Shown one piece after another: positions 3,923 through 9,650 of a stretch of DNA of 10,000 bases (position 1 is the first letter of the stretch; every line of letters begins with the position of its first letter). Below the pieces are notes generated by a model, which was given only the letters and a program-made list of their open reading frames with translations, ran no database searches and was not told the DNA's origin. This DNA is from Kiritimatiellota bacterium (GTDB lineage Bacteria; Verrucomicrobiota; Kiritimatiellia; JAAZAB01), in contig VSJD01000344.1 in NCBI GenBank assembly GCA_008636095.1, positions 1-10,000 on the forward strand, in the 5' to 3' direction. The translations under genes were made by a program, and so were the position numbers.

Positions 3923-5581
3923 ATGTTCTGTTATCAATGCGAACAAACGGCAAAGGGAACGGGTTGTACGGTGGCCGGCGTGTGCGGCAAAGACGCCCAG
4001 ACCGCAGCGTTGCAGGACCTGCTCGTATATGCCACCAAAGGCATCGCCCACTTCGCCATCAAGGCCCGACAGGCCAGCGGCAAGGATCCGGAGATCAATC
4101 GCTTTGTCCTGGAGGCGCTGTTTTCCACGGTCACCAACGTCAATTTCGATCCGGACCGCCTCGTGGCGCTCCTCAAGAAAGCCGCCAGGATGCGCGACAA
4201 GTCCCGTGCCCTCTACAACGAAGTCTGCGGCAACGAGGGACACTGTTCTTGCGGCGGGGGCGCCAAGACCCCTGAATCCGCCCTGTGGGAACCCGCCGAC
4301 ACGATGGCTAGTCTTCTGAAACAGGCCGCGGACGTGGGCATCGAGAAGCAGAAGACTGCGCTGGGCGATGACCGGGCCGGCCTCCAGAATCTCCTCACGT
4401 CTGGACTCAAGGGTACAGCGGCCTATGCCAACCATGCCATGATCCTCGGCAAGGAAGACGACTCGGTCTACGCGTTCTTCTTCGAAGCCCTGGAATTCCT
4501 GAACAATCCGGATCCCCAGGTGAACGACCTGCTGGGCATGAACCTCAAGTGCGGTGAGATCAACCTGAAGGTCATGGGACTGCTCGATGCCGCGAACACC
4601 GGCGCCTACGGCCATCCTGTCCCCACCGCAGTGCGCATCCATCCGCTGAAGGGCAAAGCCATCCTGGTCTCCGGCCACGACCTCAAGGATCTGGAGGCCT
4701 TGCTGAAGCAGACCGAAGGGAAAGGCATCAACATTTACACGCACGGAGAAATGCTGCCGGCGCATGGCTATCCCGGGCTGAAGCAATCCAAGCACCTGGC
4801 AGGCCATTACGGCGGCGCCTGGCAGGATCAACGCACGGAGTTCGACGCTTTTCCCGGCGCTATTCTCATGACCACCAATTGCATCCAGAAGCCCAAGGAT
4901 AGTTATAAAGGCCGCCTCTTTACCTGCGGCCTGGTGGCCTGGCCGGGTGTGGCGCACATCGGTGACCGCGACTACACCCCGCTGATCCGGGCGGCCCTGG
5001 CGGCGGAGGGCTTCAAGGAAGATGGACCTGACAAAACTATCCTGGTTGGTTTTGGACATAACGCCGTGCTGGGCGTGGCCGGCCAGGTGGTGCAGTCCGT
5101 CAAGGCCGGCGCCATTCGACACTTCTTTCTGGTCGGCGGTTGTGACGGCGCCAAGAGCGGCCGTAATTATTACACCGAGTTTGCCCGGCAAGTGCCGAAG
5201 GATTGCGTGATTCTGACCCTGGCCTGCGGCAAGTTTCGGTTCAACAAACTGGACTTTGGCGCAATTAACGGTATTCCGCGGCTTCTGGATTGCGGCCAGT
5301 GCAATGACGCCTATTCGGCCATCCAGATTGCCGTGGCACTGGCAAACGCATTCAAGTGTGGTGTCAACGAATTACCGCTTTCGCTGGTGCTCTCCTGGTA
5401 TGAGCAGAAAGCCGTCTGCATCCTGCTCACGTTATTACATCTTGGCATTCGCAATATCCGCCTGGGGCCCAGTCTGCCGGCCTGCGTAACGCCAGCGGTT
5501 CTGAAGGTGCTGGCGGAGAATTTCGCCATCATGCCGATAACCACGCCGGAGCAGGATCTGAAGGCCATTTTGGGAAAATAG
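3923..5581 (+). CDS. hcp: Hybrid cluster protein (hydroxylamine/NO reductase)
   Basis: Hcp is a cytoplasmic iron-sulfur-oxygen protein that reduces hydroxylamine in vitro and is thought to act as an NO reductase or S-nitrosylase in nitrosative stress. The length of 552 residues matches the Desulfovibrio-type class. The N-terminal cubane ligands are C3-x2-C6-x8-C15-x5-C21. All hybrid-cluster ligands are present: H252 (SGHDLKD), E276 (THGEM), C320 (TTNC), the persulfide-type C407 (GGCDGAK), C435, C460 (DCGQCND), and E494 with K496 (WYEQKA). An insert at 102-113 carries extra cysteines C102, C108 and C110 in a Gly-rich stretch, which I do not recognise from the characterised enzymes. The start is preceded by a strong AAAGGAG. 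It sits 15 nt after the Rrf2 gene and 22 nt before a ferredoxin gene, giving regulator, enzyme and electron donor in one operon. Identification is very secure. Confidence 0.98.
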   Translation: MFCYQCEQTAKGTGCTVAGVCGKDAQTAALQDLLVYATKGIAHFAIKARQASGKDPEINRFVLEALFSTVTNVNFDPDRLVALLKKAARMRDKSRALYNEVCGNEGHCSCGGGAKTPESALWEPADTMASLLKQAADVGIEKQKTALGDDRAGLQNLLTSGLKGTAAYANHAMILGKEDDSVYAFFFEALEFLNNPDPQVNDLLGMNLKCGEINLKVMGLLDAANTGAYGHPVPTAVRIHPLKGKAILVSGHDLKDLEALLKQTEGKGINIYTHGEMLPAHGYPGLKQSKHLAGHYGGAWQDQRTEFDAFPGAILMTTNCIQKPKDSYKGRLFTCGLVAWPGVAHIGDRDYTPLIRAALAAEGFKEDGPDKTILVGFGHNAVLGVAGQVVQSVKAGAIRHFFLVGGCDGAKSGRNYYTEFARQVPKDCVILTLACGKFRFNKLDFGAINGIPRLLDCGQCNDAYSAIQIAVALANAFKCGVNELPLSLVLSWYEQKAVCILLTLLHLGIRNIRLGPSLPACVTPAVLKVLAENFAIMPITTPEQDLKAILGK

Positions 5582-6707: not shown

Positions 6708-7517
6708 TCAAACTGTCTTCTGATTGGTCTGATGGATTGGTCCTGCATCGGCGAGGAACAAGGTCAGCGGACTGGTGGGGACGGCCTCCTCGCTCTGGGA
6801 CATGATCCCGGCCAGGCGCGCGGATCGGCCGGCCTGCACGGCTAAAGCAAAGGCGGCGGCCATAGCCACGGGATCGCCGGCAACGGCAATGGCACTATTT
6901 ACCAGCACGGCGTCGCACCCGATTTCCATGGCCAGGGCGGCATCGGCGGGCGAACGCAATCCCGCATCCACAATCACCGGTACGCGACTGTCGCGGATAA
7001 TGAGTTTCAACAGGTCGGCCGTGGCCAGGCCGTGGCCTGTGCCGATGCCCGATCCCAAGGGCATTACCGCAGCACAGCCGACATCTTCCAGACGCTTGGC
7101 CAGAACCGGGTCAGCCGGCATGTAGGGCATGACCACAAACCCTTCCGCCGCCAGGATCCTGGTTGCCTCCAGGGTTTCAATCGCATCCGGCATCAGGTGA
7201 TGGGGATTGGGATGGATTTCCACCTTGATAAACGGACTGCCACTGAGTTCCCGGGCGATACGGGCGGCCTTGACGGCCTCCTGCGCGTTGCAGGCCCCGG
7301 ACGTGTTCGGCATGAGCGTCAGGCCCTTGATGGTTAACAACGGTCCCAGCAGATCATCCGAAGGCCGTTCCCGATTGAACCGACGCAGAGCCACGGTCAC
7401 GAGTTGGGCGCCGGAAGCCTGGATGGCTTTCAGCATGGTTTCGGCATTTGAGAACTTGCCTGTCCCCAGGATCAGGCGCGAGGTAAATGTGTGTTGGCCT
7501 AATTTTAACAAATCCAT
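6708..7517 (-). CDS. thiG: Thiazole synthase
   Basis: ThiG forms the thiazole phosphate ring of thiamin from 1-deoxyxylulose 5-phosphate, sulfur carried on ThiS, and dehydroglycine; it is a cytoplasmic TIM-barrel enzyme. The 269-residue protein matches the family end to end: LILGTGKF at 16-22, VALRR at 42-46, [15 protein letters not shown] at 68-82, the catalytic Schiff-base lysine K98 in [21 protein letters not shown] at 151-163 for phosphate binding, and VPVIVDAGL at 179-187. The usual ending [13 protein letters not shown] is present, followed by a short non-conserved tail. ATG at 7517 begins the conserved part; the frame upstream (to 7610) only translates a heptamer repeat and is not coding. 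ThiS is encoded 76 nt upstream on the same strand. ThiH or ThiO, needed for dehydroglycine, is not encoded here. No TPP riboswitch fits in the gap before thiS. Confidence 0.96.
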
Positions 7518-7521
7518 GGCA

Positions 7522-7591
7522 GTTCTTCGTTCTTGGTTCTTTGTTCTTTGTTCTTGTCGTCCGTCGTCTGGCTTCTGGCGTCCGTCCCCCG
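7522..7591. repeat. Heptamer repeat island between thiS and thiG
   Basis: Ten consecutive 7-nt units fill the thiS-thiG gap. On the plus strand they are GTTCTTC, GTTCTTG, GTTCTTT, GTTCTTT, GTTCTTG, then TCGTCCG, TCGTCTG, GCTTCTG, GCGTCCG and TCCCCCG. Two unit families (GTTCTTN and NCGTCYG) are joined without loss of phase. The island starts right after the thiS stop codon and ends 4 nt before the thiG ATG, so it also replaces the normal ribosome-binding region of thiG. Confidence 0.85.
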
Positions 7592-7849: not shown

Positions 7850-8230
7850 TCACGTCTTCATCAATTTCCGGCGCTGAGCCACAACGATTTCATTAATCCG
7901 TTTGGGATTCGGTAAACCGCGGGCGACCAATTCATAGCCTTCCACGCCAGAGGTGGCCATCTTGATATCACCGATCCGGCACAGCCGCTGGCAAAACGAC
8001 TGGCTAATTTCTACTGTGTTGATTTCCGTTAGCGCCAGATCCACAACGCGCTTGCTGACCAGCCCGGTTTCGAGCACTACCCGGTCCGGGTACACACGCA
8101 AGGTCAGACTAGCCTGCTTCCAGAGCGCGATCACCAGCGGGATCAACAGCCACCCGAACACCAGGTACCAGAAGTAATGCCACCAGGATGGCTCCACTTC
8201 CAGCAGGAGGTCTTCCGTATCTTCAAACAC
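7850..8230 (-). CDS. Membrane-anchored bacterial PH-domain (bPH2/YdbS-like) protein
   Basis: A 126-residue protein of the bacterial pleckstrin-homology (YdbS-like, bPH2) type; function unknown. An acidic N-terminus (residues 2-13) leads to one aromatic-rich membrane segment at about 18-37. The PH-like part follows: LTLRVYPDRVVLETGLVSKR at 42-61, ALTEINTVEISQSFCQRLCRIGDI at 66-89, and GLPNPKRINEIV at 105-116. These match the family's usual order and wording well. It starts with GTG at 8230: GGAGG at 8239-8243 is eight bases upstream, and the ATG at 8235-8237 nearby is out of frame. It lies 46 nt before thiS and may be co-transcribed, though it has no evident link to thiamin synthesis. C80 and C84 are extra cysteines of unknown meaning. 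Confidence 0.85.
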   Translation of the reverse strand: MFEDTEDLLLEVEPSWWHYFWYLVFGWLLIPLVIALWKQASLTLRVYPDRVVLETGLVSKRVVDLALTEINTVEISQSFCQRLCRIGDIKMATSGVEGYELVARGLPNPKRINEIVVAQRRKLMKT

Positions 8231-8253
8231 CTTTTCATCCTCCGAATTTTATT

Positions 8254-8351
8254 CGACATTGAGCGTTCGACGTTGGGCGTTGAGCGTTTGCTTCACTTTC
8301 CATCAGATCTTCCATTCGACGTTGGGCGTTCGATGTTGGATGTTCGACGTT
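8254..8351. repeat. Two in-phase heptamer arrays (consensus SRRYGTT on plus strand)
   Basis: Five 7-nt units (CGACATT, GAGCGTT, CGACGTT, GGGCGTT, GAGCGTT) cover 8254-8288, and five more (CGACGTT, GGGCGTT, CGATGTT, GGATGTT, CGACGTT) cover 8317-8351. The 28-nt stretch between them equals four heptamers, so the whole 98 nt keeps phase as 14 units. It lies in the gap between the methyltransferase and the PH-domain gene. Translated on the minus strand it gives words such as TSNAQRP, a tell-tale of this repeat type rather than of a protein. Confidence 0.9.
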
Positions 8352-8365
8352 TGCTGATCTCACTG

Positions 8366-8393
8366 GTGTCCGGCGTCCGCTGTCCCCCGTCCT
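8366..8393. repeat. Short GTCC heptamer island at the 3' end of the methyltransferase gene
   Basis: Four 7-nt units (GTGTCCG, GCGTCCG, CTGTCCC, CCGTCCT) run up to and into the stop codon of the methyltransferase gene. The same wording, GCGTCCG with TCCCCCG then CCTACCCG, occurs at the 3' end of thiS around 7578-7600, so the two gene ends share a related repeat carrying the TAG stop codon. Confidence 0.7.
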
Positions 8394-9405
8394 ACCCGAG
8401 CTTGCCTGCGCGATGAGCGGCAATGAAATTCATGCCAAAATCGTCCGTGCCCAGCAGGAGCGCCTTGGCCAGCTGGAACGGCTCTGCTTTTGTGTCCAGG
8501 CCCTGGAGGATTTTGGCATTGATCTGGAGCGGATCCACAATACCGCCATCGCCGCCGGCTTCCACCGCCAGATAAGCGAAGACCTGATTGATCAGTTTGC
8601 GGGCGGGCATGCCAAAGGACACATTGCTCAAGCCGCCGATAATATGAACGGCGGGGCCGTACTTTGCCCGGATCGCCTGCACGGCGTCCAAAAACATCTT
8701 GCCGTTGTTCGCTTCCGTGGAAATCGTATAAACAAGCGGGTCCACGTGAATCCAATCCATCTGGATGCCCTTGGCCGTTAACTGCGGGATCAGTCGTCCC
8801 AAGTTGTCCAGGCGTTCCTCCGTGTTAGCAGGCAGGCCTTTTTCGCCGGCGGCGGAAGCCACCACGGCCGGTTGATATTCGGCCACCGCGCCCAGGAGCC
8901 CGATGCGCTCCAGGGAAATGGAGTTCACCATCGGCCGCCCGCGGGCTTGCTCGCAGGCTTTCAGGCCGGCGCGCATGATATCGCTGTTGGAGGAATCAAT
9001 GCTGAGCGGCAGGCGGGAGGCACCCTGGACCAGCGCCGCCGTCCACTGCATGGCCTTGATCCGTTCCGGCAAATCCATGCTGAATTCATCCACGTTCACA
9101 TCGAGGAACGAAGCCCCGGCCTTCTCCTGCTTAGCCGCCATGACCCGCAGGTAATCGCGCCCGGCTTCCTGCGCGGGCCCCTGCCCGTAAAGCCCCTGCC
9201 AGATCGCCGCGACGCAGTGCTTGATTTTTCCGTTTTCCCAATCGGCGCTCTTCAATAAAATTTCGGGAATGGGCAATGTTTTCTTCTTACCAGCATCGTC
9301 ATAGCGAATGACGTGCGCGGCGGCGTCCACCAGGTTGCCATCGCGCTTCAGCACGCGCGTGCAGTGAATGTTTTCGCCGATCACGATAAACGTCTTGATC
9401 TGCAT
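8392..9405 (-). CDS. Pterin-binding methyltransferase (dihydropteroate synthase-like; methyl-THF/corrinoid methyltransferase)
   Basis: The protein has 337 residues and the pterin-binding TIM-barrel fold shared by dihydropteroate synthase, the folate domain of MetH, AcsE and MtgA. It most likely moves a methyl group between a corrinoid protein and tetrahydrofolate in the cytoplasm. Visible motifs are the start IVIGENIHCTR (8-18), GASFLDVNVDEF (97-108; D102 and N104 likely pterin contacts), LPLSIDSSN (132-140), VNSISLER (160-167), HVDPLV (220-225), and GGLSNVSFGMP (257-267; N260 equivalent to a catalytic Asn in methyltransferases). The ATG at 9405 has AGGAGAAG upstream. The neighbouring upstream gene encodes a corrinoid protein, which supports methyl transfer rather than folate biosynthesis. 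It is more like AcsE/MtgA than FolP, because a PABA-using enzyme would not carry this N-terminus. Direction and original methyl donor are unknown. Confidence 0.9.
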   Translation of the reverse strand: MQIKTFIVIGENIHCTRVLKRDGNLVDAAAHVIRYDDAGKKKTLPIPEILLKSADWENGKIKHCVAAIWQGLYGQGPAQEAGRDYLRVMAAKQEKAGASFLDVNVDEFSMDLPERIKAMQWTAALVQGASRLPLSIDSSNSDIMRAGLKACEQARGRPMVNSISLERIGLLGAVAEYQPAVVASAAGEKGLPANTEERLDNLGRLIPQLTAKGIQMDWIHVDPLVYTISTEANNGKMFLDAVQAIRAKYGPAVHIIGGLSNVSFGMPARKLINQVFAYLAVEAGGDGGIVDPLQINAKILQGLDTKAEPFQLAKALLLGTDDFGMNFIAAHRAGKLG

Positions 9406-9427
9406 AGCACAGCTTCTCCTTTAAAAA

Positions 9428-9490
9428 TAGCCGACGTAAAGTCGGCTCTACTTATGCATCATGTAGGTAGAGCCGGTTTTATACCGGCTA
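9428..9490. repeat. REP doublet (REPIN/BIME-like) of two inverted GTAG-headed palindromes
   Basis: Two 24-nt copies face each other across 15 nt. Copy A (9428-9451) has stem AGCCGAC / GTCGGCT with loop GTAAA and ends in CTAC; copy B (9467-9490) begins GTAG and has stem AGCCGGT / ACCGGCT with loop TTTAT. The two stems differ by paired changes (AC/GT against GT/AC), so pairing is kept although sequence differs. A GTAG tetranucleotide followed by a palindrome is the hallmark of REP sequences mobilised by RAYT (REP-associated tyrosine) transposases. On the minus strand copy A is followed by ATTTTT, so it could also act as an attenuator in the methyltransferase leader. No RAYT gene is in the window. 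Confidence 0.75.
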
Positions 9491-9505
9491 TGGCTTTGTT
9501 TTCAA
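9478..9505 (-). promoter_or_regulatory. Predicted methyltransferase promoter using the REP loop as -10 box
   Basis: Read on the minus strand, TTGAAA (9505-9500) and TATAAA (9483-9478) are 16 nt apart and match sigma-70 consensus at five of six bases each. The -10 box falls in the loop and stem edge of REP copy B. Transcription would begin near 9470 and carry REP copy A in the 5' leader of the methyltransferase gene. The terminator at 9651-9691 separates this gene from the upstream one, so an own promoter is expected. Confidence 0.5.
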
Positions 9506-9540
9506 CCCATTAAGTTTCGCCCCACCGCGAGGCAGGTAAT

Positions 9541-9579
9541 TGAACAGTGAACCCTTGGAACGATGAACCTGTGAACCTG
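9541..9579. repeat. Octamer-type word repeat (TGAACCTG family)
   Basis: The units TGAACAG, TGAACCCT, TGGAACGA, TGAACCTG and TGAACCTG follow one another directly. The period is mostly 8 nt rather than 7, but the style matches the heptamer islands near thiS and the PH-domain gene. Confidence 0.7.
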
Positions 9580-9650
9580 TGTTATTCGGTGTAATATACG
9601 CCAACCACCCAACCCGACAAGCAAAATTGGTACCGCCGGTTCTGCGGCAG

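What the first reader, a model, noticed from the sequence alone, without database searches (positions are those of the whole stretch)
8254..8351. Fourteen-unit heptamer grid in the gap before the PH-domain gene
Two blocks of five 7-nt units with consensus SRRYGTT are separated by exactly four unit lengths, so phase is kept over 98 nt. Units vary at set positions but keep GTT or ATT at the end. This is not a simple tandem duplication, since neighbouring units differ while distant ones match (CGACGTT appears three times). The pattern suggests a templated or selected 7-nt grid. I have seen comparable word repeats in PVC-group genomes, without a known mechanism.
Basis: partly seen in the sequence, partly recalled or inferred. 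Interest (0 to 1): 0.7.

Follow-up and report, generated by a model that had tools for sequence, protein, structure and literature searches.

The report
Dispersed heptad-built repeat at gene edges
The stretch holds two copies of a short DNA element made of five seven-letter words, which is scattered through this and many related bacteria with one fixed end facing the neighbouring gene; how it is copied and what it does are unknown.

Summary
Window 8254-8351 has two five-unit SRRYGTT blocks, 28 nt apart, far beyond chance. They are two copies of a dispersed element of about 45 nt: CATT-CGAY-GTT-(SRRYGTT)x4-TGCTTC. A 3'-anchored pattern gives 61 own-genome hits, reversed control 0. Unit number peaks at five (40 of 84 arrays), ends are fixed and unit identity depends on position, so ongoing slippage fits poorly. 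The TGC end lies near open reading frames (median 24-28 nt; CATT end 70-96), more often at stops than starts; inverted pairs are 13 TGC-outward, 0 inward. The polarity recurs in 47 elements from named Verrucomicrobiota-type and Planctomycetota MAGs. The words occur in 101 of 387 phylum genomes. Copies are mostly not shared with the closest congener tested. The single 14-unit grid is probably chance spacing of two copies. Period 7 dominates this genome's intergenic arrays. Heptamer repeats are known in other phyla; this polar, fixed-length element was not found in my library searches. Best reading: a REP-like, non-autonomous interspersed repeat spread by copying, agent unknown. New variant of a known kind.

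The parts
8250..8294 (+). Copy 1 of the element: TATT + CGACATT GAGCGTT CGACGTT GGGCGTT GAGCGTT + TGCTTC (diverged copy)
8313..8354 (+). Copy 2: CATT + CGACGTT GGGCGTT CGATGTT GGATGTT CGACGTT + TGC; close to the own-genome consensus; TGC end 37 nt before the stop codon of the gene at 8392-9405
8366..8393 (+). Heptad words of another family (GTGTCCG GCGTCCG CTGTCCC CCGTCCT; 'F3', GACGGAC-like on the gene strand), lying between copy 2 and the stop codon
   Evidence: grid print; family analysis
7522..7555 (+). GTTCTTN heptad array ('F2', AAGAACN on the gene strand) just upstream of the ThiG-like start
7557..7590 (+). GTCYGTC-type words (F3) between the GTTCTTN array and the ThiS-like gene
   Evidence: sequence, by eye; lag-7 array 7513-7579
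8392..9405 (-). Pterin_bind-domain gene (PF00809, methyltetrahydrofolate-methyltransferase-like); its stop faces the TGC end
7850..8230 (-). bPH_2-domain gene (PF03703); its start lies 19 nt from copy 1's CATT end

Best explanation
The two blocks are copies of one short, non-autonomous interspersed repeat ('F1', about 45 nt) that spreads by being copied to new sites rather than by growing in place. Shown: fixed ends (CATT, TGCTTC), a usual count of five heptads, position-dependent unit words, dispersion in the genome, a fixed polarity with the TGC end toward the nearest open reading frame, inverted pairs only TGC-outward, patchy presence over a phylum, and presence/absence differences between congeners. 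Inferred: an unidentified activity copies or inserts it in a polar way at gene edges; selection then removes copies that harm genes. The 7-nt repetition is probably inherited from an older heptamer array or serves as repeated contact sites for the copying protein. No host function is shown.
For: 61 three-prime-anchored hits, reversed control 0; PWM hits 83 against a best null score of 3.5 where the cut-off was 14 (the 657 kb scanned was enriched for arrays). 9 PWM hits in the systematic 435-kb sample, about 79 per genome. 40 of 84 arrays have five units, 13 four, 18 three, 9 six, 4 two; 53 of 84 are followed by TGCTT and 33 of 84 preceded by CATT. Unit-by-position association G = 133.6 against at most 112.2 in 1000 within-array shuffles, 48 arrays. 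TGC side to nearest gene: median 24 nt (39 stops) and 28 (20 starts), with 20 more TGC ends inside an ORF in sense and 0 antisense; CATT side medians 96 and 70; 13 outward, 0 inward, 6 same-orientation neighbours. Polarity also in elements without a partner: TGC closer in 25 of 36, p 0.01. Named MAGs: 47 elements, TGC side medians 15 and 30.5, CATT side 103 and 84, p 3e-6; a subset of 15 from distant lineages, p 0.002. Outward partners 24 of 77 own and 14 of 45 named, inward 0 and 0. A presence/absence difference between TGA and the next ATG at C76 against sister G004.
Against: No copying enzyme was found. No target-site duplication was seen by eye in the printed pairs, nor tested systematically. 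Cores of inverted pairs are unrelated and arms within a pair are not more alike than arms of different pairs in the own genome (p 0.81; named set p 0.02). Elements of two relatives with other ends (G014, 11 elements; G010, 16) did not show the polarity. Gaps without the element are as poorly conserved between G000 and G004 (single alignment over 5 of 22) as gaps with it (3 of 9), so turnover is not special to it. Gene calls are my own dicodon caller, not an annotation.
Confidence: 0.55

Rival explanations
1. Ordinary intergenic heptameric simple sequence repeats: arrays arise by polymerase slippage in place, mutate, and are tolerated outside genes; the shared period 7 reflects the polymerase.
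For: Period 7 dominates across several unrelated word families (families). Heptameric repeats are over-represented in many bacteria and the polymerase-footprint idea is in print (PMC4692102, passages and Discussion read). Other families here may well be of this kind.
Against: For this family: count peaks at five with fixed ends, identical neighbours no commoner than in shuffles (0.111 against 0.132), position-dependent words, and the same ends in different classes (that scan required the 3' end).
Confidence: 0.2
2. The element is one end of a MITE-like insertion: TGC is the outer tip of a terminal inverted repeat, and single copies are half-elements.
For: All inverted neighbours under 600 nt are TGC-outward (13 to 0); outward partners also in named MAGs at 73-274 nt.
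Against: About two thirds of elements have no partner, and partners of intermediate score are almost absent (26 of 77 at score 6, 24 at 16). Cores unrelated. At 600-4000 nt, outward pairs (2) are no commoner than inward (2), so no autonomous version was seen.
Confidence: 0.2
3. An RNA-level signal at gene ends: the gene strand reads GAAGCAAAC(RYYSAAC)n after stop codons, an unstructured track for a protein or for termination.
For: Stop-facing copies outnumber start-facing ones (39 plus 20 inside ORFs in sense, against 20). In tandem gaps three families favour one strand: F1 41 to 20, F2 13 to 3, F3 23 to 3. A terminator-like hairpin is predicted over copy 1, on the strand opposite to the genes (10 such sites against 4.4 in shuffles).
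Against: About a quarter of copies (20 of 79) face starts, giving the opposite RNA strand. Copies are mostly absent from the same gaps in the sister genome (0 of 18 intact; regex for 14, by eye for 4). No Rfam match in the window.
Confidence: 0.12

Closest known systems
Heptameric intergenic repeats GGGNATC / GGGGA(C/T)T of Xanthomonas and Nostoc (PMC4692102; passages and Discussion read)
   Same: 7-nt units, heterogeneous words, intergenic bias, some inverted repeats, variation between close relatives, function unknown.
   Different: Those are G-rich, fold as G-quadruplexes, range from 2 to 26 units and usually have four; this one is not of the GGG type, peaks at five units and has fixed ends and a gene-facing polarity.
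TAACTGA direct repeats of Beggiatoaceae, Cyanobacteria and Bacteroidetes (PMC4679880; abstract and passages read)
   Same: Heptamers outside genes, about 170 sets per genome, patchy distribution without a known mechanism.
   Different: One exact word, mostly just upstream of starts in one orientation; here a degenerate word set, mostly at stops, with fixed ends.
REP/BIME repeats and Correia/NEMIS-type MITEs (recalled, no call)
   Same: Short, dispersed, intergenic, solo or in inverted pairs with fixed relative orientation.
   Different: No palindrome within a copy, no conserved core, no enzyme identified.
STRR heptamers of cyanobacteria (name recalled; one listing hit)
   Same: Heptanucleotide arrays in intergenic DNA.
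   Different: As for slippage-type repeats: no fixed length or ends (recalled).

Membership tests
Heptameric simple sequence repeat (slippage type) | Tandem 7-nt units, mostly outside genes | tested here: met
   period 7; 24 of 32 lag-7 arrays non-coding
Heptameric simple sequence repeat (slippage type) | Freely varying unit number, neighbours homogenised | tested here: not met
   40 of 84 arrays have five units; identical neighbours 0.111 against 0.132 in shuffles
REP/BIME | Dispersed, intergenic, near gene ends, solo or inverted pairs of fixed orientation | tested here: met
REP/BIME | Each unit an imperfect palindrome | tested here: not met
   The consensus of a single copy is a direct-repeat array, read; no folding run was made
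REP/BIME | Linked to a RAYT (Y1_Tnp) gene | tested here: inconclusive
   PF01797 in 95 of 101 genomes with the words, 184 of 286 without (tally by hand; Fisher 5e-10), but by eye large genomes nearly all have it; G391 has 29 hits and no PF01797 match
MITE | Both terminal inverted repeats around a conserved core | tested here: not met
   Outward partner in 24 of 77; cores unrelated
MITE | Target-site duplication | tested here: inconclusive
   None seen by eye or the C76 alignment; not tested systematically
Integron attC sites (core GTTRRRY, recalled) | An integron integrase in the genome | tested here: inconclusive
   TIGR02249: 0 matches over cut-off, best 118 bits over positions 220-315; the same search rings in all 14 control genomes, and the assembly is 87% complete
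TAACTGA-type repeats | Exact TAACTGA word just upstream of starts | tested here: not met
   Words are SRRYGTT; stops predominate

The most novel reading that the evidence does not exclude
A PVC-wide class of polar, heptad-built gene-edge elements, written by a dedicated and unknown machinery that adds or copies 7-nt words outward from open reading frames; several word families are laid down on one strand in a preferred order (F3, then F1, then F2), as in sister locus L032, where 18 units of three families keep one phase.
Probability: 0.2. Interest if true: 0.8.

Novelty: new variant of a known kind. Interest (0 to 1): 0.5.

Why it matters
Heptamer repeats have been noted in several phyla without a mechanism. 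Here one family has a fixed length, fixed ends and a rule for how it faces genes, shared across classes, so its origin becomes testable: look for the enzyme, empty sites and fresh insertions. It also warns that intergenic DNA in these genomes is largely repeat-made, which matters when promoters or small RNAs are predicted there.

Tried and rejected
One 14-unit grid over 98 nt: rejected as probable chance spacing (1 of 6 same-orientation spacings is a multiple of 7; F1-F2 neighbours in register 1 of 3). Against this, sister locus L032 keeps 18 units of three families in phase.

Hairpin selected as such: arms within pairs are not more alike in the own genome (p 0.81), weakly so in the named set (p 0.02) (that script printed its results and then stopped on an error while saving a file).

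Rho-utilisation track: considered and dropped, because a quarter of copies face starts and the F3 words are G-rich on the gene strand (by eye, not computed). Integron attC: no integrase over cut-off. Rfam: 0 matches. A first, simpler gene caller gave more antisense calls and was replaced by the dicodon caller. A first sister comparison on 492 kb found one informative gap and was extended.

caution: with the loose GTTNNNN pattern 31 of 38 relatives have matches, but in several (such as G020, G021, G022) the reversed control is as high or higher; the tighter SRRY pattern does not have that problem in most genomes (reversed control non-zero in 10 of 387, 51 hits, by my reading).

Full report
Observation. 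The two blocks are at the stated places and are not chance. They lie in the gap between a Pterin_bind gene (8392-9405, minus) and a bPH_2 gene (7850-8230, minus), with ThiS-like and ThiG-like genes further on. A second heptad array, GTTCTTN, stands at 7522-7555 in the same gene row, and GTCYGTC-type words flank both.

Genome-wide. GTTNNNN repeated to four GTTs gives 101+98 own-genome hits against 5+6 for the reversed pattern. In a systematic sample of 40 contigs (435 kb), lag-7 arrays number 32, 24 of them non-coding, in DNA that is 12.6% non-coding; lags 4-6 and 8-13 give 0-5 each, lags 14 and 21 (multiples of 7) give 18 and 7, and lag 18 gives 10, of which 1 is non-coding. Several word families share the period.

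The element. Aligning the own-genome copies on their 3' end showed CATT-CGAY-GTT-(SRRYGTT)x4-TGCTTC. The anchored pattern has 61 hits and 0 reversed. Of 84 arrays with at least three in-phase GTTs, 40 have five units; this set includes a related GTTCRGT family with other ends. Commonest words from the 3' end are CGAT, GGAT, CGAT, then GGGC or CGGC, then CGAC or CGAT; this order exceeds within-array shuffles. Window copy 2 follows it closely; copy 1 is diverged.

Placement. With my dicodon gene calls (about 87% coding in the enriched set; they match the window's genes), the TGC end is nearest to a stop in 39, to a start in 20, and inside an ORF in sense in 20 of 83; the other 4 have no gene called on that side. 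Medians are 24 and 28 nt, against 96 and 70 on the CATT side. The start-facing cases have genes whose translations look like ordinary proteins (judged by eye, no family search). Close inverted neighbours are 13 outward and 0 inward. Elements without a partner keep the polarity.

Other genomes. An exact 33-nt pattern with the TGCTT end matched 40 stretches among named genomes: 39 with Verrucomicrobia, Kiritimatiellae or Lentisphaerae-type labels and 1 Planctomycetota, from 18 MAGs by my count of titles. The tool may leave out records near the window's genome. There, 47 elements repeat the polarity (p 3e-6); in 15 from lineages outside the Kiritimatiellae/Lentisphaerae-labelled MAGs and outside MAG KR13, which I left out of that subset, p is 0.002. 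In 387 phylum genomes 101 (78 of 198 genera) have four in-phase SRRY GTTs. Some relatives have their own ends: G010 ends in GTTCTC, G014 in GTTCGC; the polarity was not seen in them.

Turnover. Five congeners have five different contents in the Pterin_bind to PH gap, one of them a short gap without words. Of 83 own-genome elements, 18 had both flanks aligned in G004: none is intact there (14 by pattern, 4 by eye), and two, at C215 and C146, are interrupted remnants. C76 shows the element in one genome and a short spacer between the same stop and start in the other. But gaps without the element are about as poorly conserved.

Order of families. On the gene strand F3 precedes F1 in 18 of 22 same-strand neighbours, F1 precedes F2 in 5 of 6, F3 precedes F2 in 3 of 3; F1 and F3 share a strand in 22 of 25. 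This ordering is unexplained.

Literature. Heptameric intergenic repeats are in print for Xanthomonas and Nostoc (PMC4692102) and Beggiatoaceae and others (PMC4679880). Searches for PVC heptamers and for the words themselves found no description in the library held; most subscription papers are not in it.

Conclusion. The block is a pair of copies of a short, polar, dispersed repeat. Copying to new sites is the best reading; its agent and any function are open.

Noticed in passing
G000 C19 about 5250-5390, C304 about 1540-1600 (own genome); G004 gaps matching C215 and C146: Palindromic, REP-like sequences interrupt copies of the element, so the arrays also serve as landing places for another repeat.
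   Followed up: partly
G000 C256:7878-8060: Three same-orientation copies 92 and 90 nt apart lie in what looks like a tandem triplication of about 90 nt that includes a gene end.
   Followed up: no
window 9540-9581: Imperfect 7-8-nt repeats (TGAACAG, TGAACCC, TGAACCTG twice) before the B12-binding gene.
   Followed up: no
window 9425-9495: Inverted-repeat-like sequence (GCCGACGTAAAGTCGGC and GAGCCGGTTTTATACCGGCT); a terminator-like site is called at 9447-9429 on the minus strand.
   Followed up: no
own-genome set, 20 of 83 elements: The TGC end lies inside a called ORF, each time in sense; several such ORFs run through the heptads near their 3' end and may carry heptad-coded tails.
   Followed up: partly
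G000 C271:16346-16633: Partial tyrosine recombinase resembling integron integrases (118 bits, under the cut-off).
   Followed up: partly
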